A DNA stretch of 64,000 nucleotides from Seongchinamella unica (GTDB taxonomy: Bacteria; Pseudomonadota; Gammaproteobacteria; Pseudomonadales; Halieaceae). This document shows positions 8,341-43,522 of this stretch, one piece after another (positions within the stretch are counted from its first letter, which is position 1; each line of letters begins with the position of its first letter). The position numbers and the translations under genes are program-made. The stretch spans positions 248,001 through 312,000 of the forward strand of contig NZ_SMSE01000004.1 in NCBI RefSeq assembly GCF_004354085.1. The letters are read 5' to 3'. A model generated the notes under the pieces. The model was not told the origin of the DNA. It saw only the letters and a program-made list of their open reading frames with translations, and did no database searches.

Positions 8341-8916
8341 ATGAGTGTCCAGAAAACCTATATCGACGCCAACCAGCTGTTGCTGGATTCCTACGAGCTG
8401 GGGCTGATGGTCCTGGAAAGCGGCTTCAAGCCGGACTACATTGTCGGCGTCTGGCGCGGCGGCGCCCCGGTGGGCATCGCCATCCAGGAACTGCTCAAGT
8501 ACGGCGGCCTGCACACCGACCATATTGCCATTCGCACGTCCCACTACACCGGCATTGAGCAAACCAGCGATTCCGTTATCGTGCACGGCCTGCACTACCT
8601 GATCGAGCACGTGAATGCGGAAGACAAGGTGCTGATCGTCGATGATGTGTTTGACTCGGGGCGCAGTATCCACCAGGTCATCCTGGACCTGGAAAAAAAA
8701 TGCCGACGCAATACCCCGGTGTTCAAAATTGCCACACCCTACTTCAAGCCTGCCAACAACAAGACCCCTCTGGTGCCGGATTTCTACCTGCACGAGTCAG
8801 ACCAGTGGCTGGTGTTCCCCCACGAGCTGGAAGGCCTGTCGGCAGTCGAGGTGCTGGAGGAAAAACCCGGCCTTGGCAAACTTCGCCAGCGACTGGCACG
8901 GTTACACCCGGGCTGA
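8341..8916 (+). CDS. Hypoxanthine-type phosphoribosyltransferase
   Basis: Purine or related phosphoribosyltransferase that joins a base to PRPP in salvage. The PRPP-binding loop [13 protein letters not shown] is at about residues 98-110, and the WRGGAPVG loop is near residue 39. Length (191) fits the class I fold. The C-terminal hood [20 protein letters not shown] is typical of the branch annotated as hypoxanthine/xanthine phosphoribosyltransferases in gammaproteobacteria, though base specificity cannot be read from the sequence. Its last 15 bases overlap the convergent end of ung. Confidence 0.85.
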
Positions 8917-9615
8917 GTCGGTTCGAGGCAGCTCGGGCAGGGACCAGTCTATGGGGGTCTGCCCCCTTGCCTGCAGGTATTCGTTGGCTGCCTTGAAGTG
9001 GCCGCAACCGAAAAAGCCACGGTGGGCACTGAGCGGCGAGGGGTGCGGGGCCTGGAGTACGCAGTGGCGCTCACTGTCAATAATTGCGCCTTTGCGCTGG
9101 GCGTAACTCCCCCACAGCATGAACACCACACCCTCGCGCCGGCTGTTGATGACCTCAATCACCCGGTCGGTAAAAATTTCCCAGCCCTTGCCCTGGTGAG
9201 ATGCCGCCCGCGCACACTCCACCGACAGTACGCTGTTGAGCAACAACACCCCCTGGTCCGCCCAATACGTGAGATGACCGTGGGCCGGTATGGGCAATCC
9301 CAGCTCGGCGTTGATTTCCTTGTAGATATTCTGCAGCGAGGGCGGCACCCTGGTGCCGGGTCGCACGGAGAAGCAGAGACCGTGCGCCTGACCCTCGCCG
9401 TGGTAGGGGTCCTGGCCGAGAATAACCACCTTCACCGCGTCCAGCGGGGTGTGTTCGAAGGCATTGAATATTTCCCCACCGGCGGGAAATATTTGCTTGC
9501 CTGCGGCTTTTTCAGCCCGGAGAAACGCCCGCAGCTGCTCCATGTAAGGCTGCTCGAACTCGGGTGCCAATGGCTCCAGCCAGCTCGGCTCCAGCTTGAC
9601 CGCCCGCTCAGTCAC
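8902..9615 (-). CDS. ung: Uracil-DNA glycosylase
   Basis: Family 1 uracil-DNA glycosylase, which removes uracil from DNA for base-excision repair. The catalytic water-activating motif [13 protein letters not shown] and the minor-groove loop [17 protein letters not shown] are both intact. I place the start at GTG 9615, giving 237 residues, the normal length. Longer in-frame starts add a basic N-terminal extension that runs inside the upstream gene. The GTG overlaps the stop of the upstream CofC-CofG-CofH gene by 8 bases, so translation is probably coupled and ung looks like the last gene of the F420 operon. Confidence 0.93.
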
Positions 9616-12600
9616 TGGCCGCCAGCAGAAAAACCTGGTCGCCCGCTGCCGCTGACGGCGCCGGCGGACTTGAATCCCTGCCGTCAAGCTGCAGCGTGGC
9701 GATTAGCTTGCTGCTTGCGGACTTCGTGGCAGTGGCATTTTCAGTTGCGACGAGTGGCAGCGCATTGAATGCGGCCAACCGGCGGGAACCACAGACCTCG
9801 CCATAAAGGGTGTTGCGCATGCGCGACACGCGTCCGGCGGCGCGAATCTGCGCCTCCATTTTTGCCGGGGCCCATTCCTGGCCGTGGTCCGACCCCGCTG
9901 CCCGGGTGATGCTCTCATTCATCAGGGTTCCGCCCAGGTCATTACAGCCAGCTGCGAGGCAGGCTGCCACGCCCTGCTCGCCCATCTTGACCCAGGAGGC
10001 CTGGATATTGTCGATGAGACCGTTGAACACCAGCCGGGCAACAGCGTGCATTAACAGCGCTTCCCTGAAGGTGGGACCGCGCCGGGCCCTGCCCCGCAGA
10101 TACATGGGCGCTTCCATGTGCACGAAGGGCAATGGCACAAACTCGGTGAATCCGCCGGTACGCTGTTGCAGGTCACGCAGCGCCAGCAGGTGATGCGCCC
10201 AGTGTGCCGGGGTCTCGATATGGCCATACATGATCGTGGCGGTGGTGCGCAGGCCGATGCCGTGAGCGGCCTCCATCACCTCCAGCCACTGCTGGCTGTT
10301 CAGCTTGTCCGGGCACAGCGTGGCCCTCACCTCATCATGGAGGACCTCGGCCGCCGTTCCGGGCAGCGTGTTGAGACCGGCCTGCTGCAACTGCAGCAGG
10401 AACTCCCGGACACTCACCCCCAGGGTATGGGCTCCCTGCCAGACTTCCAGCGGGGAAAAGGCGTGAATATGCATTTCGGGGGTCGCCGCCCTCACCGTGG
10501 CCAGTATGTCCAGGTAGGTCTGGCCGGTATAGTCGGGGTGTATGCCTCCCTGCATGCATACCTCCGTGGCGCCCCGCTCCCAGGCCTCGACGCAGCGGCG
10601 GGCGATTTCCTCGCCGCTGATATCGTAGGGCCTGCCGCGCAGGTTCTCACTGGCCTTGCCTTTGGAAAAGGCGCAGAACTGGCACTTGAAGTAACAGACA
10701 TTGGTGTAGTTGATGTTGCGGTTGACCACGTAGCTGACGGGATCGCCCACCACCTCCTGCCGCAGTTCGTCCGCGGCACGCACCAGATAGGCAAAATCGG
10801 CGCCACGGCTCTCGAACAGCCGGCTCACATCGGCGAGGTCAAGTGCAGCCTTTGCCCGGCAGCGATCGACGATCCGGCGCAGCTCGGGATCGACCGCCTG
10901 GTTCTGAACAGGGCTGGCGAGAAGCGCCGCTTCCACCACCGGCACCGGTCGCTCTTCGCCGGGAACCCACTCATCTCGGCGGGCATAGCCCATGGCGTCG
11001 CTGTGATTGAGCACCGCCGGCAGTAGTGCAGGATCGAGCCACTCAGCGGCCCGGCGCACATAAGCCGGGTATATCGTCAGGCGCTGGTCGAGAAATTTGC
11101 CGGCAGCAGCCGTTTCCCGGGCGAGGTTGTCCAGGTGTGGCCAGGGCGCCTCAGGATTCACGTGATCTGGGGTCAACGGCGACACACCACCCCAGTCGTT
11201 GATGCCAGCGGCTACCAACTGGGGCAATACTCCCGGGCTCAGGTTTGGCGGCGCCTGGATATTCATCTGCGGTCCGAACACCAGCCGCGCCACGGCGATC
11301 GTCCACAGCAGTTCCTGCAGGTCGGGTTCCGGCGCGCGGGCCATGAGCGTGTTCGGCTTGGCGCGGAAATTCTGCACAATCACCTCCTGCAGGTGACCAT
11401 GGCGCTGATGCACCGCACGCAGTGCCAGCAGGGATTCAATACGCTCGCGGCGGGTTTCCCCGATGCCGATAAGAATGCCCGAGGTAAAGGGTACGCTGGC
11501 CTGCCCTGCCAGCTCCAGGGTTTCGAGCCGCACTGCCGGATCCTTGTCCGGCGAACCGTAATGGGGCATGCCCTTTTCACAGAGTCGCCGGGAGGCGGAC
11601 TCCAGCATGATACCCATGGACGCACTCACCGGTCTCAGCGAGGCGATTTCCTCCGCGGTCATGCAACCGGCATTGATATGGGGCAACAGCCCGGTTTCTG
11701 CCAGTACCCGACTGGCGACATCGCGCAGGTATTCCAGGGTGGAGCTATAACCCATCTCCGCCAAAGCCTTACGCGCGGTGCTGTAGCGCAGCTCGGGTTT
11801 TTCACCGAGTGTGAACAGGGCTTCCTGACAGCCCATGGCTGCGCCATGACGACACAGTTCCAGCACCTGCTCCACCGGCATATAGGGTTGGTCGATGTTT
11901 TTCGGGGTCTGGGCAAAGGTGCAGTAATGGCAGACGTCCCGGCACAGGTGAGTCAGCGGGATGAATACCTTGCGCGAGTAGGTCAACACATTGCCATGAC
12001 CGCAATCACGCTGGGCGCCCGCCACGTCCGCCAGGGCCGCGGTATCAGTGAAGGTGGACAACGACAGGGCTTCCGCATCACTGGGGCTGTACCCCGCCAG
12101 GAGCTTGTTTTTCAAGCGCTCCCAGGCGTCCTCCGATTTCCCGGCCAGCGCGCGGGCCAGCCCGGAACTGGCAAGATAGGCCTCGGTGTGACGCCCTCCG
12201 CGGCTGCCCGCCAGCAGGCATTGCAGGTCCTCCACGTCATCGACATCCAGTGCGATGCCGGGCCGCTCCAGCACCTGCACGCTGTGTCGCGATCGTTCGG
12301 CCCACTGCTGGTGGGCGGCACGGCTTCCGGGGCCGAAGCTGAAGTGCGGGCAGTTCTCGGCGCCGAACACCAGCAGGTTGGTACCCTGCCGCTGCCGGTC
12401 GGTACCAATCACCAGCCCGTTTCGCGTCGCCTGCAGTTCCAGGGCCTCGGTCAGTTCACTTGCCTGCAGCGCGGGAATATCGCCGTGCAGCACCAACAGG
12501 CGCCTGGCTCCACCGGTAATCAGCCGGCTGACCGCCGCCGAGATGACCGGATTCAAACCCCGGCTCGATACCTGTCCGCCGGCGTCCAGTTGGCTTTCGG

Positions 12601-12823
12601 CAATAAACGATGCACCGAAGTCAGCGGCGATGCGCCGGGCATCCGGATCATCGGATACCAGCGTGACAGTGTCGATCAACGAGTGTTCACTGAGTACAGC
12701 AAGCACGTCTCGGACCATGGCCTCGACCAGGGCTGAACGCTGGTCCGGCGTCAGCACGGCGGCCAGTCGGCTTTTGGCCTGAGCCAGTGACTTCAGGGGA
12801 ATCAGGGCATGTGTAGCGCTCAC
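9608..12823 (-). CDS. cofCGH: CofC-CofG-CofH fusion: F420 guanylyltransferase plus FO synthase
   Basis: A 1071-residue fusion for coenzyme F420 synthesis. Residues 1-215 are CofC-like ([40 protein letters not shown]), activating a three-carbon phospho-acid with GTP. About 240-590 are CofG, a radical SAM domain with CRDVCHYC (Cys 294, 298, 301). About 650-1010 are CofH, a radical SAM domain with CYFKCQFC (Cys 710, 714, 717). CofG and CofH together make the deazaflavin FO from tyrosine and 5-amino-6-ribitylaminouracil. A 55-residue tail without clear homology follows. The GTG start at 12823 has GGAG upstream and makes a GTGA overlap with the cofD stop. FbiC of Actinobacteria is a CofG-CofH fusion; the extra CofC is the unusual part. 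Confidence 0.93.
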
Positions 12824-13782
12824 CGCAGCTCCAGAGCCAGGCAAAGCCTGGCCAGCTCGATCTTTTGTTCCAGGGTGTTCATGATGGTGGGCGCCACGCG
12901 CGCCTTGAGTCCCAGTCGATTGATATCGTCGGCCAGTGTAGCGTCACTCTCGTCTATGAGGAAATAGTCTACCAGCCCGGGATAGTGTTCCGCGTAGTGC
13001 CGGGCAACCCCCAGCGCGGTGACCGGCACCCGCAATTCAGCCATCATTTTGGCCGCCGGTCCCTTGATCGCCAGCCCGGCGACGATGGGCGACACCATGA
13101 CGACCGGCGCATCGCAATCACGCAGGGCCTTCCAGAGACCGCGCAACTTGAGTATGGGGTCGATACTGACAAACGGATTGGAGGGGCAGACCACCACCTG
13201 ACTGAAGTGATTTTTCGCCAGCAGTTCCATCACCGCCGGGTTGGGCGCGGCGTCTTCGATGCCCTCGAAACTGAAGCCGTGGACCCGCGGCTCACAGCGC
13301 CGGCGTACAAAGTAATGCTGGAACGGCAAATCCCCCTCATCGCTGTGCACGGTGGTGCGCACAGCCTGGCATGACATGGGATGAACGACGCTCGAAATGG
13401 CCATACGCCGCGCCAGGTCGGCGGTCACCGCCGCCAGGTCATCGCCCGCAGCCAAGCGAGCGGTGCGAAACAGGTGGGTGGCAATGTCCTTGTCACCCAG
13501 CCTGAACCAGGTGCTGCCCCCCAACTGTTCCAGCGCGCCCATGGCATTCCAGGTCTCCCCCTCCAGGCCCCAGCCCATCGCCGGGTTGGCGCGTCCGGCG
13601 AGGGTGTACAGCAGTGTGTCCAGGTCGGGACTGATATGCAGCCCCAGGTGCTCAAAGTCATCGCCCGTGTTCACCAGGATCTGCAGCGTACCCGGCGGCA
13701 ACAGCCGGTCCAGCCCCAGACAGAGCTTGGCGCCACCCACCCCGCCAGTCAGCGCCAATACCCGTGTATTTTCTGCCGGCAT
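12820..13782 (-). CDS. cofD: F420 phosphotransferase CofD (FO transferase)
   Basis: Transfers the activated three-carbon phospho-acid made by CofC to FO, giving F420-0. Visible motifs are LTGGVGGAK near the N-terminus, VNTGDDFEHLGLHISPDLDT, and SPIVAGLAIKGPAAKMM near residue 240. The start at 13782 is the ATG in a TAATG overlap with the cofE stop, giving 320 residues, the usual size; longer in-frame starts would extend into cofE. Where I would expect an acidic MSDD-like stretch there is HPMSCQAVRT, which may matter for substrate choice, but that comparison is from memory. It overlaps the next gene by 4 bases. Confidence 0.93.
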   Translation of the reverse strand: MPAENTRVLALTGGVGGAKLCLGLDRLLPPGTLQILVNTGDDFEHLGLHISPDLDTLLYTLAGRANPAMGWGLEGETWNAMGALEQLGGSTWFRLGDKDIATHLFRTARLAAGDDLAAVTADLARRMAISSVVHPMSCQAVRTTVHSDEGDLPFQHYFVRRRCEPRVHGFSFEGIEDAAPNPAVMELLAKNHFSQVVVCPSNPFVSIDPILKLRGLWKALRDCDAPVVMVSPIVAGLAIKGPAAKMMAELRVPVTALGVARHYAEHYPGLVDYFLIDESDATLADDINRLGLKARVAPTIMNTLEQKIELARLCLALELR

Positions 13783-14555
13783 TAGCGGAACAGGTCCATA
13801 CTGCGATCCCGCAACAGGCTGCCTGAACCGGTATCGGCGGGTTGCAGCGTCGCTCCCCTCACCAGTACCACCGGGCATGCCTCAGCGGCCTGCCCCATGA
13901 CCAGCGAAGCTGCCGCGGCCAATTCATCGGCCACGGCGGGCTCTGTCACTTCCAGCACATTGCCGAACATGTCCTTTTCGCCGACCTGGTTAAACAGGGG
14001 CTCCAGGCCTGCCGTGCCAATGGCGATGCCGACGGTGCCGTTGCGCCAGGCGCGTCCGGCACTGTCATTGATGATGACCTGGGGCGCAACACCGGTACGC
14101 CGCTCCAGGTCCAGACGCAGGCGTTGCGCCGAGGCGTCGGGATTTTCCGGCAACAGCAGCACCCGGGGATTATCCGGGTCGATCTCAATGTTGGATTTGT
14201 CGATACCGGCATTGGCATGCACGTAGCCGTTGCGGTGCTCGACGATGATTACCCCCGGGCGCACCCGCAGGACCTCGCGACTCTCGCGCAGGATCAGCTC
14301 TGCCTGCCGGGGGTCCTTGTCGGCCCTGGCAGCCAGTTCCAGGGCCTCAGGAGAAGGCTCGATATCAGCGAGCTCGACGTAACAATCCTCGGCTTTGGAA
14401 ACGATTTTCTGGGCCAGCACCAGCACATCACCCGATTGCAGTGCCAGGGCATTGTCGGCGAGCGACCCTGCAACCAGCTGGCCGAGATCGTCCCCCGGTT
14501 CAACCCGGGGAAATCCTGCCAGTGCGATGAGTTCGATGCGGGCCGCAGCGGCCAA
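13782..14555 (-). CDS. cofE: F420:gamma-L-glutamyl ligase CofE
   Basis: GTP-dependent ligase that adds gamma-linked glutamates to F420-0. The N-terminal GDVLVLAQKIVSKAED block, the HRNGYVHANAGIDKSNIE substrate segment and INDSAGRAWRNGTVGIAIGTAG are characteristic of CofE/FbiB. At 257 residues it is the single-domain form, lacking the C-terminal nitroreductase domain that FbiB of mycobacteria uses to reduce dehydro-F420. The start is the TTG at 14555 after GCAGG; there is no ATG near the expected N-terminus. It lies 10 bases after fno and overlaps cofD by one base. Confidence 0.92.
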   Translation of the reverse strand: MAAAARIELIALAGFPRVEPGDDLGQLVAGSLADNALALQSGDVLVLAQKIVSKAEDCYVELADIEPSPEALELAARADKDPRQAELILRESREVLRVRPGVIIVEHRNGYVHANAGIDKSNIEIDPDNPRVLLLPENPDASAQRLRLDLERRTGVAPQVIINDSAGRAWRNGTVGIAIGTAGLEPLFNQVGEKDMFGNVLEVTEPAVADELAAAASLVMGQAAEACPVVLVRGATLQPADTGSGSLLRDRSMDLFR

Positions 14556-14565
14556 GGGGTACCTG

Positions 14566-15246
14566 CTACGCTTCGAGACCGGTTATGCGAATACCGGCAT
14601 GACAGTTGTACTGCTTATTGATGACGATCAGCACTGACGTAAGCGCCTCGGCAGCGGCCGCGTTGTTGATCATTCCCGCGTGGAAACCGCGCATGCCAGC
14701 TGCCTCAACCAGCTTGATCACTTCTTCCCTGGCCGCTTTCTTGTTGCCGCAGACCAGCACATCGCAATCCAGCCCGCTGCCTTCCTGCAGGTGGGCGGCG
14801 GCAACATTCTGAAACGCAGACACCACGGACACATCCTCGCCGAGCAGATCCTGGGCGATCTGGCCGGCACTGCCGCCTTCCGGCAACTGCACCCTGGCGA
14901 CCTTGGGTGGTACCAGAGGGACGGTAACGTCGATGAGTATCTTGCCCGCCAGCGCTGGTTTTACCAGTTCCAGCGTACTCGCCTGGTGGCTGAAGGGCAC
15001 AGTCAGGGCCACAATGTCAGCCGCTTCCGCCGCCGCCAGGTTCTCCATCGCCTGCACGCTGATTTCGGCGACGCCACGTTCGGCCATCACCTCGCGCAGG
15101 TCGGCCACTGCGGCCTCCGCTTTCTCCTGGGTGCGGGAACCGATAATCACCTCATAGCCCGCCTGGGCCCAACGCCGCGCCAAACCGGTACCGAGATCGC
15201 CGGTGCCGCCGAGAATTGCCAGTGTGGGAAGTGTCTCTGTCGTCAT
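14566..15246 (-). CDS. fno: NADPH-dependent F420 reductase
   Basis: Moves hydride between NADPH and F420, supplying F420H2 to dependent enzymes. The N-terminal Rossmann motif ILGGTGDLGTGLARRWA and the GSRTQEKAE stretch that binds the NADP phosphate are clear. Further in are VPFSHQ, the FQNVAA loop, and DVLVCGNKKAAREEV. The ATG at 15246 with AGGA nine bases upstream gives 226 residues, typical for Fno/NpdG. It is first in the operon fno-cofE-cofD-cofCGH-ung and divergent from an SDR gene. Confidence 0.92.
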   Translation of the reverse strand: MTTETLPTLAILGGTGDLGTGLARRWAQAGYEVIIGSRTQEKAEAAVADLREVMAERGVAEISVQAMENLAAAEAADIVALTVPFSHQASTLELVKPALAGKILIDVTVPLVPPKVARVQLPEGGSAGQIAQDLLGEDVSVVSAFQNVAAAHLQEGSGLDCDVLVCGNKKAAREEVIKLVEAAGMRGFHAGMINNAAAAEALTSVLIVINKQYNCHAGIRITGLEA

Positions 15247-15454: not shown

Positions 15455-16255
15455 ATGAACACCACCGACAATTCGGCAGCGGATAACCCCCTGGACTTTC
15501 ACGGCAAAGTGGTGCTGGTCACCGGCGGTGGCAAGGGCATCGGCCGCGGCATCAGCGAACGTTTCCTGGCCGCCGGCGCTGACGTGGTGATCTGCGGTCG
15601 CTCCGAACCGGAATCCCTGCCGACCGTCGGCGCCAGGCAGGCCCTGTTCACCCCCTGTGACGTGCGCAAGTTCGAGCAGGTGGAAGCCTGTGTCGAGTAT
15701 GTCGTGAAGCAGTTGGGTCGACTCGACGTGCTGGTCAACAATGCCGGCGGCGCCCCCCATGCCGATGCCGCCACCGCCTCGCCGCGCTTTTCCGAGTCCA
15801 TTATCCAGCTCAACCTGATCGCGCCGCTTAACTTCAGCCAGGTAGCCAACCGGGTGATGCAGCAACAGGACAGTGGCGGCAGCATCATCAATATCGCCAG
15901 CGTCAGCACTATTCGACCCTCCCCGGGCACCGCCGCCTATGGTGCCGCCAAGGCGGGGCTGGTGAACCTTGGCACCTCTCTGGCGGTGGAGTGGGCACCG
16001 AAAGTCCGGGTCAATGCGGTCATTGTCGGCCTCACCCGCACCGAGCAGGCGCACCTGCACTACGGCGACGAGGAGGGCATCGCTGCCGTGGGAGCAACCA
16101 TTCCACTGGGCCGCATGGCCGTTCCAGAAGACGTCGGCGACGCCTGCCTGTTTCTGGCCTCGCCAATGGCCTCCTATGTCAGTGGCACCAGCTTTGCGGT
16201 GCATGGGGGCGGCGAAAAACCGGCTTTTCTTGACGCAGCCAACCCCAAAGACTAA
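15455..16255 (+). CDS. SDR family oxidoreductase
   Basis: Classical short-chain dehydrogenase/reductase of 266 residues. It shows the cofactor motif TGGGKGIGRG near residue 24, NNAG about 95, catalytic Ser in IASVS, and the YGAAK pair (Tyr and Lys) about 165. GRS after beta-2 suggests NADP(H) preference. The ribosome site AAGGGAG lies about 9 bases before the ATG. It is divergent from the F420 reductase across a 208-base gap, so shared regulation is possible. The substrate is unknown; SDRs of this type often act on steroid or fatty-acyl hydroxyls. Confidence 0.85.
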   Translation: MNTTDNSAADNPLDFHGKVVLVTGGGKGIGRGISERFLAAGADVVICGRSEPESLPTVGARQALFTPCDVRKFEQVEACVEYVVKQLGRLDVLVNNAGGAPHADAATASPRFSESIIQLNLIAPLNFSQVANRVMQQQDSGGSIINIASVSTIRPSPGTAAYGAAKAGLVNLGTSLAVEWAPKVRVNAVIVGLTRTEQAHLHYGDEEGIAAVGATIPLGRMAVPEDVGDACLFLASPMASYVSGTSFAVHGGGEKPAFLDAANPKD

Positions 16256-42231: not shown

Positions 42232-42540
42232 ATGCATTTTATTTTCGAAGTCCACATGAAACCCGGCTATCCGCCGGAGCGCTATGCCCAGGCGTGGGTG
42301 AAGGCCAGCGAACTGATCCAGCAGGCGCCGGGTGCCCTGGGTACCCGGCTGCATCGCAAAATCGGCGAGCCCAACGTGCTGCTGGCTATCGCGACCTGGG
42401 AGTCGAAAGCGGCTCGCGACGCGATGGAAGCGACACCGGACCAGCAGGTGGCGGACATCATTCGCGAGCAGGCCCAGTTTGTGGAAGTCAAAGTCATCGG
42501 CGAGTACGAAGCGCCCGAATGGGAAGTGGTCATCCGCTAA
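42232..42540 (+). CDS. Antibiotic-biosynthesis-monooxygenase (ABM)-fold protein
   Basis: A 102-residue dimeric alpha+beta-barrel-type protein: EVHMKPGYPPERYAQAWVKASELIQQAPGALGTRLHR, then LLAIATWESKAARDAM, the usual ABM layout of strand-helix-strand with a WES motif. Such proteins act as small monooxygenases, haem-degrading or sensing proteins. The next gene begins two bases after its stop, so it may work with that LLM flavoprotein. TATACT at 42220-42225 ends only six bases before the ATG, and no clear ribosome site is seen, so the message could be leaderless. Confidence 0.75.
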   Translation: MHFIFEVHMKPGYPPERYAQAWVKASELIQQAPGALGTRLHRKIGEPNVLLAIATWESKAARDAMEATPDQQVADIIREQAQFVEVKVIGEYEAPEWEVVIR

Positions 42541-42541
42541 C

Positions 42542-43522
42542 ATGCAGCTGTCTGTACTGGACCAGTCCCTGGCACGCCGTCCCGAGGAAGCCCCCGTTGC
42601 GCTGCAGGAAACCCTGCAGATGGCCCGGTGGTGCGAACAGCTGGGCTACGGGCGCTTCTGGGTGTCTGAACATCACGCTTTCCCCTCGGTGGCCGGCAGC
42701 GCGCCCGAGGTACTGCTGGCAGCCATCGGAGCTGCCACCGACACCATACGTATTGGCTCCGGCGGAATCATGTTACCCCACTACAGCCCCTACAAGGTCG
42801 CCGAGGTTTTTTCGTTGCTCGCCAATCTTTACCCGGGGCGGGTGGATCTGGGCATTGGTCGTGCCCCGGGGGCGGACATGTCCACCGCCGTTGCGCTGGC
42901 CCCCGACGGCCACCCACGATTCGACAGGTTTCCGGAATTGACAGCCCGGCTGGGCGAGTATCTGTGGCAGGACAGTACCCAGCCCCTGGTCAGTCCGAAG
43001 CCGCCCCCCGGAATCCCCCTCTGGATGCTGGGCTCGAGCCCGGACAGCGCAGTGCTGGCGGCGAGGCTGGGACTACCCTATAACCTGGGCCTGTTTATCA
43101 ACCCCCAGGCAGATCCCCGACTGATAGCTCACTACAAACGGCATTTCCAGCCCAGTGACCTGCAGCCGGCGCCGCATGCCATCCTCACCCTGAGTGTATT
43201 TTGTGCCGACGATGAAGACAGGGCGCGGGCACTATTGCTGGCCCACGACCTCAACCTTTTCCGGTTTTTCAGCGGCGAGACCACCGGCAAATCCCTGACT
43301 CCGGAAGAGGCCGTCGCCTACCCCCTGGGCCCCCGGGAAAGTGCTTTTATCCGCAGTCGGGCGCAAAGCCGGGCAGTGGGAACACCGGACCAGGTGTGGC
43401 AGCAGTTGCGGGAACTGGCCGCCGCCCACGACGCCGACGAAGTTATGGCGGTGACCAATATGTATTACTTTGAGGACCGAAAGCGCTCCTTCGAACTGCT
43501 GATTCGCCACCGGCCGGACTGA
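42542..43522 (+). CDS. LLM-class flavin-dependent oxidoreductase
   Basis: A 326-residue luciferase-like TIM barrel: QLSVLDQSL at the N-terminus, WVSEHHAFPSVAGSAPEVLLAAIGAATDTIRIGSGGIMLPHYSPYKVAEVF, and LYPGRVDLGIGRAPG. This matches the FMN-using alkanal-monooxygenase-like group (MsnO8/YhbW-like). Because the same window encodes F420 synthesis, F420 use is conceivable, but the SEHH segment is more typical of FMN enzymes. The chosen ATG follows the ABM gene by one base. Confidence 0.85.
   Translation: MQLSVLDQSLARRPEEAPVALQETLQMARWCEQLGYGRFWVSEHHAFPSVAGSAPEVLLAAIGAATDTIRIGSGGIMLPHYSPYKVAEVFSLLANLYPGRVDLGIGRAPGADMSTAVALAPDGHPRFDRFPELTARLGEYLWQDSTQPLVSPKPPPGIPLWMLGSSPDSAVLAARLGLPYNLGLFINPQADPRLIAHYKRHFQPSDLQPAPHAILTLSVFCADDEDRARALLLAHDLNLFRFFSGETTGKSLTPEEAVAYPLGPRESAFIRSRAQSRAVGTPDQVWQQLRELAAAHDADEVMAVTNMYYFEDRKRSFELLIRHRPD

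What the first reader, a model, noticed from the sequence alone, without database searches (positions are those of the whole stretch)
8902..15246. A complete F420 operon in a gammaproteobacterium-like genome, with a CofC-CofG-CofH triple fusion
fno, cofE, cofD and a single 1071-residue gene for CofC, CofG and CofH lie head to tail with overlaps of 1 to 4 bases or a 10-base gap. Both radical SAM sites (CRDVCHYC and CYFKCQFC) are intact. F420 is best known from Actinobacteria and Archaea; CofG-CofH fusion (FbiC) is known there, but adding the CofC nucleotidyl transferase on the N-terminus links the first and the middle steps in one polypeptide. Gene overlaps and the operon come from the sequence; the rarity statement is from general knowledge.
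Basis: partly seen in the sequence, partly recalled or inferred. Interest (0 to 1): 0.8.

Follow-up and report, generated by a model that had tools for sequence, protein, structure and literature searches.

The report
Triple-fused F420 enzyme in marine bacterium
A marine bacterium of the Halieaceae family carries a complete gene set for the unusual redox cofactor F420, in which three of the cofactor-making enzymes are joined in one protein; the gene set is common among its relatives, while the three-way joining seems to have come and gone several times and was not found described in the papers checked.

Summary
Confirmed. fno, cofE, cofD and a 1071-residue CofC-CofG-CofH gene (then ung) lie head to tail at window 8902-15246, minus strand. 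All six F420 domains pass curated NCBIfam cut-offs; both radical-SAM motifs and the CofC metal residues are intact. The genome is Halieaceae, the genus of strain HTCC2148.

The operon is ordinary for the order: 83 of 293 sampled genomes match, and 73 of 107 fetched loci have fno-cofE-cofD-cofC-fbiC. The fusion is a recurrent variant: 21 fused loci in six families, about 8 gains or losses on an FbiC tree. Linkers run 27-98 residues between lineages but are 49, gap-free, in seven species of this genus.

F420 is probably made and used: F420-type luciferase-like enzymes (TIGR03559) occur in 36 of 39 genomes with FbiC and 0 of 19 without. CofC has the PEP/2-phospholactate residue, not the 3-phosphoglycerate serine. 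No FbiB-type dehydro-F420 reductase was found, so one step is open.

I read the fusion as a trifunctional enzyme giving co-expression and tethering; channelling is unproven. A new variant of a known kind.

The parts
14566..15246 (-). fno/npdG, NADPH-dependent F420 reductase (226 aa from ATG; open frame continues up to 15300)
   Evidence: TIGR01915 201 bits, cut-off 149.8; ATG seen
13782..14555 (-). cofE, F420-0:L-glutamate ligase (257 aa, TTG start), without the C-terminal nitroreductase domain of FbiB
   Evidence: TIGR01916 274.6 bits, cut-off 180.65; the full FbiB-length model NF009810 (PRK13294) stays under its cut-off, 209 of 304, and is matched only in its first 243 of 449 positions
12820..13782 (-). 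cofD, transferase that joins the activated acid to FO (320 aa from the ATG that overlaps the cofE stop)
   Evidence: TIGR01819 267.5 bits, cut-off 257.45; junction
9608..12823 (-). cofC-cofG-cofH triple fusion, 1071 aa (GTG start)
   Evidence: TIGR03552, TIGR03550, TIGR03551 and NF006687 all over cut-off in one frame; AlphaFold model mean pLDDT 84.4, pTM 0.77
12215..12823 (-). CofC domain of the fusion (guanylyltransferase), limits from the profile built here
   Evidence: domain limits (L233); sequence match to 6bwg, 7p97, 2i5e; residues equivalent to K17, L92, D116, T148, G163, S166, D188, D190 of Mtb FbiD kept; fold match to 6bwg_A TMt 0.87 and 7p97_AAA TMt 0.90
12071..12214 (-). linker of about 48 residues between the CofC and CofG profile matches (CofC tail plus FbiC N-terminal part)
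   Evidence: length 49 by the profile count in seven loci of the genus; no gap in seven species over fusion residues 206-285; predicted largely helical, 10-residue pLDDT blocks 80, 92, 67, 88, 93; no in-frame ATG or GTG
10988..12070 (-). CofG radical SAM domain, motif CRDVCHYC
   Evidence: TIGR03550; limits; motif
9800..10870 (-). CofH radical SAM domain, motif CYFKCQFC
   Evidence: TIGR03551 and PF19288; limits; best fold match of the whole model is MqnE 6xi9_B, TMt 0.84
8902..9615 (-). ung, uracil-DNA glycosylase; last gene of the head-to-tail run, no known role in F420 synthesis
   Evidence: NF003589 355.8 bits, cut-off 223; follows the F420 genes in 34 of 73 loci with the full gene order
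15455..16255 (+). SDR oxidoreductase, divergent from the operon; conserved neighbour, not shown to be part of the pathway
   Evidence: NF005893 (PRK07856) 401.5 bits, cut-off 255; divergent beside fno at 60% identity or more in 47 of 85 unnamed-genome loci with fno, own included

Best explanation
It is a working F420 biosynthesis operon of the proteobacterial type. CofH and CofG, the two radical SAM domains, make the deazaflavin FO. The CofC domain on the same polypeptide activates phosphoenolpyruvate (or 2-phospholactate) with GTP. Separate CofD joins the two products, CofE adds glutamates, and Fno reduces F420 with NADPH for luciferase-like (LLM) oxidoreductases elsewhere in the genome. The fusion arose when neighbouring, often overlapping cofC and fbiC came into one frame; most likely it gives 1:1 co-expression and keeps CofC beside the FO-making domains, without obligatory channelling. 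Shown here: gene content, intact residues, one conserved frame, repeated change of the fused state on a tree, co-occurrence with LLM enzymes. Inferred: catalysis of each domain, the substrate of CofC, the direction of the changes (gain rather than loss), any benefit of the tether.
For: All six F420 domains pass curated cut-offs. CofC residues are kept in all 21 fused proteins (D116, S166, D188, D190, L92, G163; K17 in 20 of 21). The linker has no gap in seven species and no ATG or GTG in the window's own protein. TIGR03559 LLM enzymes (E 1e-60; each positive genome has a match over the cut-off): 36 of 39 genomes with FbiC, 0 of 19 without, own genome counted, Fisher p 1.6e-12; one genome per genus 27 of 30 against 0 of 19, p 8e-11. 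The own genome has 14 LLM proteins, 11 over cut-offs of F420-dependent subfamilies. Gene order fno-cofE-cofD-cofC-GH in 73 of 107 fetched loci, and the same order with separate genes on a Paraburkholderia plasmid. In 70 split loci with both genes on one strand, fbiC is out of frame with cofC in 60 and in frame in 10; 35 of the 70 have an ATG or GTG that would give an overlap of up to 20 bases.
Against: No enzyme of this lineage has been assayed to my knowledge. No FbiB-type reductase was found: TIGR03553 gives at best 47 bits against a cut-off of 249.55 among four nitroreductases, and six nitroreductase probes find no relative at E 1e-8 in 107 fetched loci, so if CofC uses PEP a reduction step is unaccounted for. 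Three FbiC-positive genomes lack TIGR03559 (G018, G029, G047). The CofC domain and linker evolve fast (49% and 37% mean identity in the genus against 85% for CofG), so tight coupling is not evident from conservation. The F420 review says that FbiC's two domains pass their product by diffusion (PMC8498797, passage).
Confidence: 0.85

Rival explanations
1. Channelling scaffold: the fusion docks CofD so that FO and the unstable GDP-activated acid are both handed over without leaving the complex.
For: CofC activity is reported to depend on CofD, and its product is labile (passages of PMC8498797, and PMC8764529). The fusion recurs in six families. The linker has fixed length within the genus and is predicted largely helical.
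Against: CofD is not part of the fusion, linker length differs from 27 to 98 residues between lineages, most fetched relatives keep separate genes, and FbiC's own two domains are reported to exchange by diffusion.
Confidence: 0.2
2. Neutral fusion: neighbouring genes fall into frame by small indels now and then, with no effect on function.
For: 35 of 70 split loci have a possible fbiC start overlapping cofC by up to 20 bases and 10 of 70 are already in the same frame; about 8 state changes on the tree; the linkers printed for six fused loci look like CofC tail plus FbiC N-terminus with no evident common sequence.
Against: The fused state is kept in all eight genomes of the genus (one cut by a contig end), in all three f13 loci and four of five f47 loci of the tree, and the linker of this genus shows no indel in seven species.
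Confidence: 0.35
3. The operon makes 3PG-F420, as in Mycetohabitans.
For: It would explain the missing dehydro-F420 reductase, since 3PG-F420-0 needs no reduction step (PMC8764529, passage).
Against: The diagnostic serine is absent: the window's CofC has glycine, and 0 of 99 CofC sequences examined have serine there.
Confidence: 0.05
4. The fusion is made but cut, or FbiC is also made from an internal start, so that the working enzymes are separate.
For: Two in-frame TTG codons lie in or just after the linker of the window's protein, and 14 of 21 fused genes have an ATG or GTG there.
Against: No ATG or GTG in the window's own linker, and a linker modelled as largely helical.
Confidence: 0.1

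Closest known systems
FbiC (bifunctional CofGH, FO synthase; NCBIfam NF006687)
   Same: CofG and CofH domains in the same order, over the family's cut-off; both radical SAM motifs
   Different: CofC is joined to the N-terminus in the same frame
Proteobacterial F420 operon npdG-cofE-cofD-cofC-fbiC with separate genes, e.g. Paraburkholderia sp. PGU19 plasmid (L266)
   Same: same genes in the same order
   Different: cofC and fbiC are two overlapping genes there
FbiD/CofC guanylyltransferases (6bwg/6bwh Mtb, 7p97 Mycetohabitans)
   Same: fold and metal/substrate residues
   Different: fused to FbiC; carries the glycine of PEP/2-PL enzymes, not the 3-PG serine
FbiB (CofE fused to the dehydro-F420 reductase) of Actinobacteria
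   Same: another fusion in the same pathway; CofE domain
   Different: here CofE stands alone and no such reductase domain was found

Membership tests
F420 biosynthesis operon | CofC, CofD, CofE, CofG, CofH all present and over curated cut-offs | tested here: met
FbiC | CofG and CofH in one protein with two CX3CX2C motifs | tested here: met
CofC/FbiD | conserved metal and substrate residues (D116, S166, D188, D190 by Mtb FbiD numbering) | tested here: met
3-PG-activating CofC (3PG-F420 pathway) | serine at the diagnostic position (S162 in M. rhizoxinica) | tested here: not met
   glycine in the window, 0 of 99 with serine
Actinobacterial FbiA-D pathway via dehydro-F420 | FbiB with C-terminal nitroreductase domain, or a stand-alone equivalent | tested here: not met
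   CofE alone; TIGR03553 best 47 of 249.55 bits among the four PF00881 proteins of the genome; no relative of six probes at E 1e-8 in 107 loci. An unrelated reductase is not excluded
F420-using organism | F420-dependent enzymes present | tested here: met
   11 of 14 LLM proteins over F420-subfamily cut-offs; co-occurrence. Family names are annotation, not assay
F420 producer | F420 detected in cells | not testable with these tools
   needs LC-MS or fluorescence

The most novel reading that the evidence does not exclude
Repeated, independent joining of CofC to FbiC in several lineages of the order (five or more changes forced by supported branches in either tree) marks selection for a tethered F420 metabolon that hands FO and the labile activated acid to CofD, in organisms that use a route without FbiB (2-phospholactate, or an unknown dehydro-F420 reductase).
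Probability: 0.22. Interest if true: 0.6.

Novelty: new variant of a known kind. Interest (0 to 1): 0.4.

Why it matters
F420 is mostly discussed in methanogens and Actinobacteria. Here a complete and apparently used F420 system is shown to be common in marine Halieaceae and relatives, including named strains (HTCC2148, Mangrovimicrobium sediminis) that carry the fusion and could be tested. The natural CofC-FbiC fusions offer ready-made constructs for F420 production in a host and a way to test whether tethering helps the CofC/CofD step. The missing dehydro-F420 reductase makes an open question of the pathway (which acid, which reductase) directly testable.

Tried and rejected
3PG-F420: rejected on the diagnostic residue. 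The genome's nitroreductases as dehydro-F420 reductase: L235 (15 of 39 FbiC genomes, 4 of 19 others) does not track the operon and L234 (30 of 39, 9 of 19, p 0.037) only weakly; the other two were not tested so. The divergent SDR as an F420-dedicated gene: it tracks the operon (30 of 39 against 3 of 19, E 1e-80) but also occurs without it, and in some genomes lies elsewhere than beside it, so it was left as a neighbour. A link to steroid breakdown through TIGR03559 (named after Rv3520c) and the SDR was considered: OM60-clade steroid genes are in print (PMC4810484, passages) and Rv3520c stands in a list of mycobacterial cholesterol genes (PMC6429209, passages), but that the SDR resembles Rv3559c is recalled and was not tested, and the neighbours of one TIGR03559 gene here match pimeloyl-CoA dehydrogenases below cut-off; it stays a lead. 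A PDB sequence search with the SDR at E 1e-40 gave nothing. Plasmids: 74 records match, in none does one place cover 80% of the query, so no triple fusion was seen there. Promoter and terminator scans were no better than shuffles.

Limits. Both trees are quick ones with SH-aLRT only; counts of changes cannot tell gain from loss. The first tree holds 100 of 107 fetched loci (seven lack a full-length domain, among them the fused but cut G005). The second holds 52 of those 100 rows (all fused, all separate-gene rows and split rows picked by hand) and nine plasmid records. Of 83 matching genomes of the order sample 13 were not fetched. Two of the three 'FbiC without cofC' genomes of that sample have under 500 bases of contig before FbiC, so cofC may be cut off. 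Genomes from metagenomes may hold frameshifts that split or join genes. The structure model rests on 35 rows, eight of them fused. F420 users were sought as PF00296 and PF01243 only. Ney et al. 2017 is not held, so mention of this fusion there is not excluded. 'Not found in print' rests on searches (listings with the starts of abstracts) and on the eight places with 'fusion' in PMC8498797; F420 with Halieaceae and with HTCC2148 gave 0 papers.
Full report
What is there. On the minus strand, fno, cofE, cofD and one long gene for CofC, CofG and CofH lie head to tail, followed by ung. Junctions were read in the DNA: 10-base gap, 1-base overlap, 4-base overlap, and 8 bases of overlap with ung. All six F420 domains pass curated NCBIfam cut-offs. 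The fusion is 1071 aa from its GTG. The two radical SAM motifs are intact.

Where it is. The window is G000:C5:248001-312000 of a 4.19 Mb genome in 10 contigs. The best named relatives are Haliea, Halioglobus, Parahaliea and other Halieaceae records; the placing in Halieaceae is my inference from these.

How common. All counts here include the window's genome. A search with the fusion protein found matches in 40 of 58 relatives at E 1e-3; one of them, G045, only at 6.6e-4, so 39 are counted as FbiC-positive. At E 1e-80 it found 83 of 293 genomes of the order, 15 of 369 of the class sample and 4 of 398 of the phylum sample. At least ten of the 83 have separate CofG and CofH (eight with two separate matches, plus G170 and G276). 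I fetched 107 stretches and called domains with profiles built here. Of the 83 genomes of the order sample, 18 hold the triple fusion, 44 have cofC split from fbiC, 3 have FbiC without cofC in the stretch (two of them with under 500 bases of contig before FbiC), 5 another arrangement, and 13 were not fetched. Of 31 FbiC-positive genomes of the family, 10 are fused, and an eleventh, G005, is fused up to the end of its contig. In all, 21 fused loci stand in six families: f1 10, f47 4, f13 3, f17 2, f14 1, f18 1. Of the 14 other class-sample genomes, 12 were fetched and none is fused.

Origins of the fusion. On a tree of 100 CofG+CofH rows the fused state needs 8 changes, at least 7 forced by starred branches; on the second, smaller tree 9 and 5. 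These are gains or losses; the method cannot tell which. The fused gene of G033 is sister to the split pair of G023 (100*, 99*), where an fbiC start overlapping cofC by 4 bases lies in another frame. Linkers between the CofC and CofG domains run from 27 to 98 residues between lineages, yet in seven species of this genus the region shows no gap. In the window's protein it holds no ATG or GTG, as in 7 of 21 fused genes, and AlphaFold models it as largely helical (35 rows, eight of them fused).

CofC chemistry. Aligned with the solved FbiD and CofC chains, all 21 fused domains keep D116, S166, D188 and D190 and the L92 and G163 states; K17 is kept in 20 of 21, and T148 is threonine in 15 and serine in 6. 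PMC8764529 (passages) names the serine at the G163 position as diagnostic for 3-phosphoglycerate; 0 of 99 CofC rows have it (of 78 rows not called triple, 72 have glycine, 5 aspartate, 1 asparagine). So PEP or 2-phospholactate is expected. With PEP a dehydro-F420 reductase is needed (PMC6450877, passages; [quoted passage not shown] CofE here lacks the FbiB domain. Of the four PF00881 proteins of the genome two score 47 and 39 bits with the FbiB C-terminal model (cut-off 249.55) and two not at all at E 1e-8. L235 does not track the operon and L234 only weakly, and six nitroreductase probes find no relative at E 1e-8 in 107 loci. This step is open.

Is F420 used. The genome has 14 LLM proteins; 11 pass cut-offs of F420-dependent subfamilies, 3 of TIGR03559, 2 of TIGR03617, 5 of TIGR03619 and 1 of TIGR03564. 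TIGR03559 is present in 36 of 39 FbiC-positive genomes and in 0 of 19 others; the exceptions are G018, G029 and G047. LLM genes of that type lie in the same fetched stretch as the operon in at least seven loci at 130 bits or more. Of two PF01243 proteins one is PdxH and the other is below the cut-off of TIGR03618, 37 of 79 bits.

Origin of the operon. The same order with separate genes is annotated on a Paraburkholderia plasmid; the other annotated records with several of the genes show other orders. On a tree of 61 rows, the gamma rows group with alpha and beta rows and one long-branched Rhodococcus row, with three actinobacterial rows outside (98*). The review's view is that fbiC arose in Actinobacteria and was then acquired by other bacteria (PMC8498797, passage); this tree does not speak against an old transfer.

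Neighbour. The SDR at 15455-16255 stands divergent to fno at 60% identity or more in 47 of 85 unnamed-genome loci that have fno, and in 24 of 45 named ones, with some genomes in both sets.

Literature. In PMC8498797 all eight places with 'fusion' speak of CofG-CofH or CofE-FbiE fusions or of fusion in general. Searches listed no title or start of abstract that mentions a CofC fusion; I did not read those papers in full. A paper on archaeal fusions has no CofC, CofH or FbiC in its main text.

Verdict. A real, probably working F420 operon with a recurrent three-domain fusion that I did not find described: a new variant of a known kind.

Noticed in passing
window 15455-16255: An SDR (PRK07856 family) stands divergent to the F420 operon; conserved so in 47 of 85 unnamed-genome loci with fno, and in genomes it tracks FbiC (30 of 39 against 3 of 19).
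   Followed up: partly
L043:6962-9403 and others among L037-L070: A second kind of locus has FbiC with no other F420 gene in the fetched stretch; in L043 it is followed by a NAD(P)-binding protein, an unknown protein, a CDP-alcohol phosphatidyltransferase and a chorismate mutase type II domain protein.
   Followed up: partly
L161 and L160 (genome G008): The operon's FbiC is cut down to its CofG part while a second FbiC without cofC in its stretch lies on another contig.
   Followed up: no
L128 (genome G006): A second, split cofC plus FbiC copy (cut by a contig end) in a genome that also has the triple fusion.
   Followed up: no
window 42332-43519: An LLM protein of the MsnO8 type (TIGR03558, 344.9 bits, cut-off 166.95), not an F420 subfamily.
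   Followed up: no
L166 (genome G018): A very long-branched FbiC with a stop codon inside the matched region, in a genome without TIGR03559: perhaps decaying.
   Followed up: no
window 8902-9615: ung follows the F420 genes in 34 of 73 loci with the full gene order; no reason is known to me.
   Followed up: no
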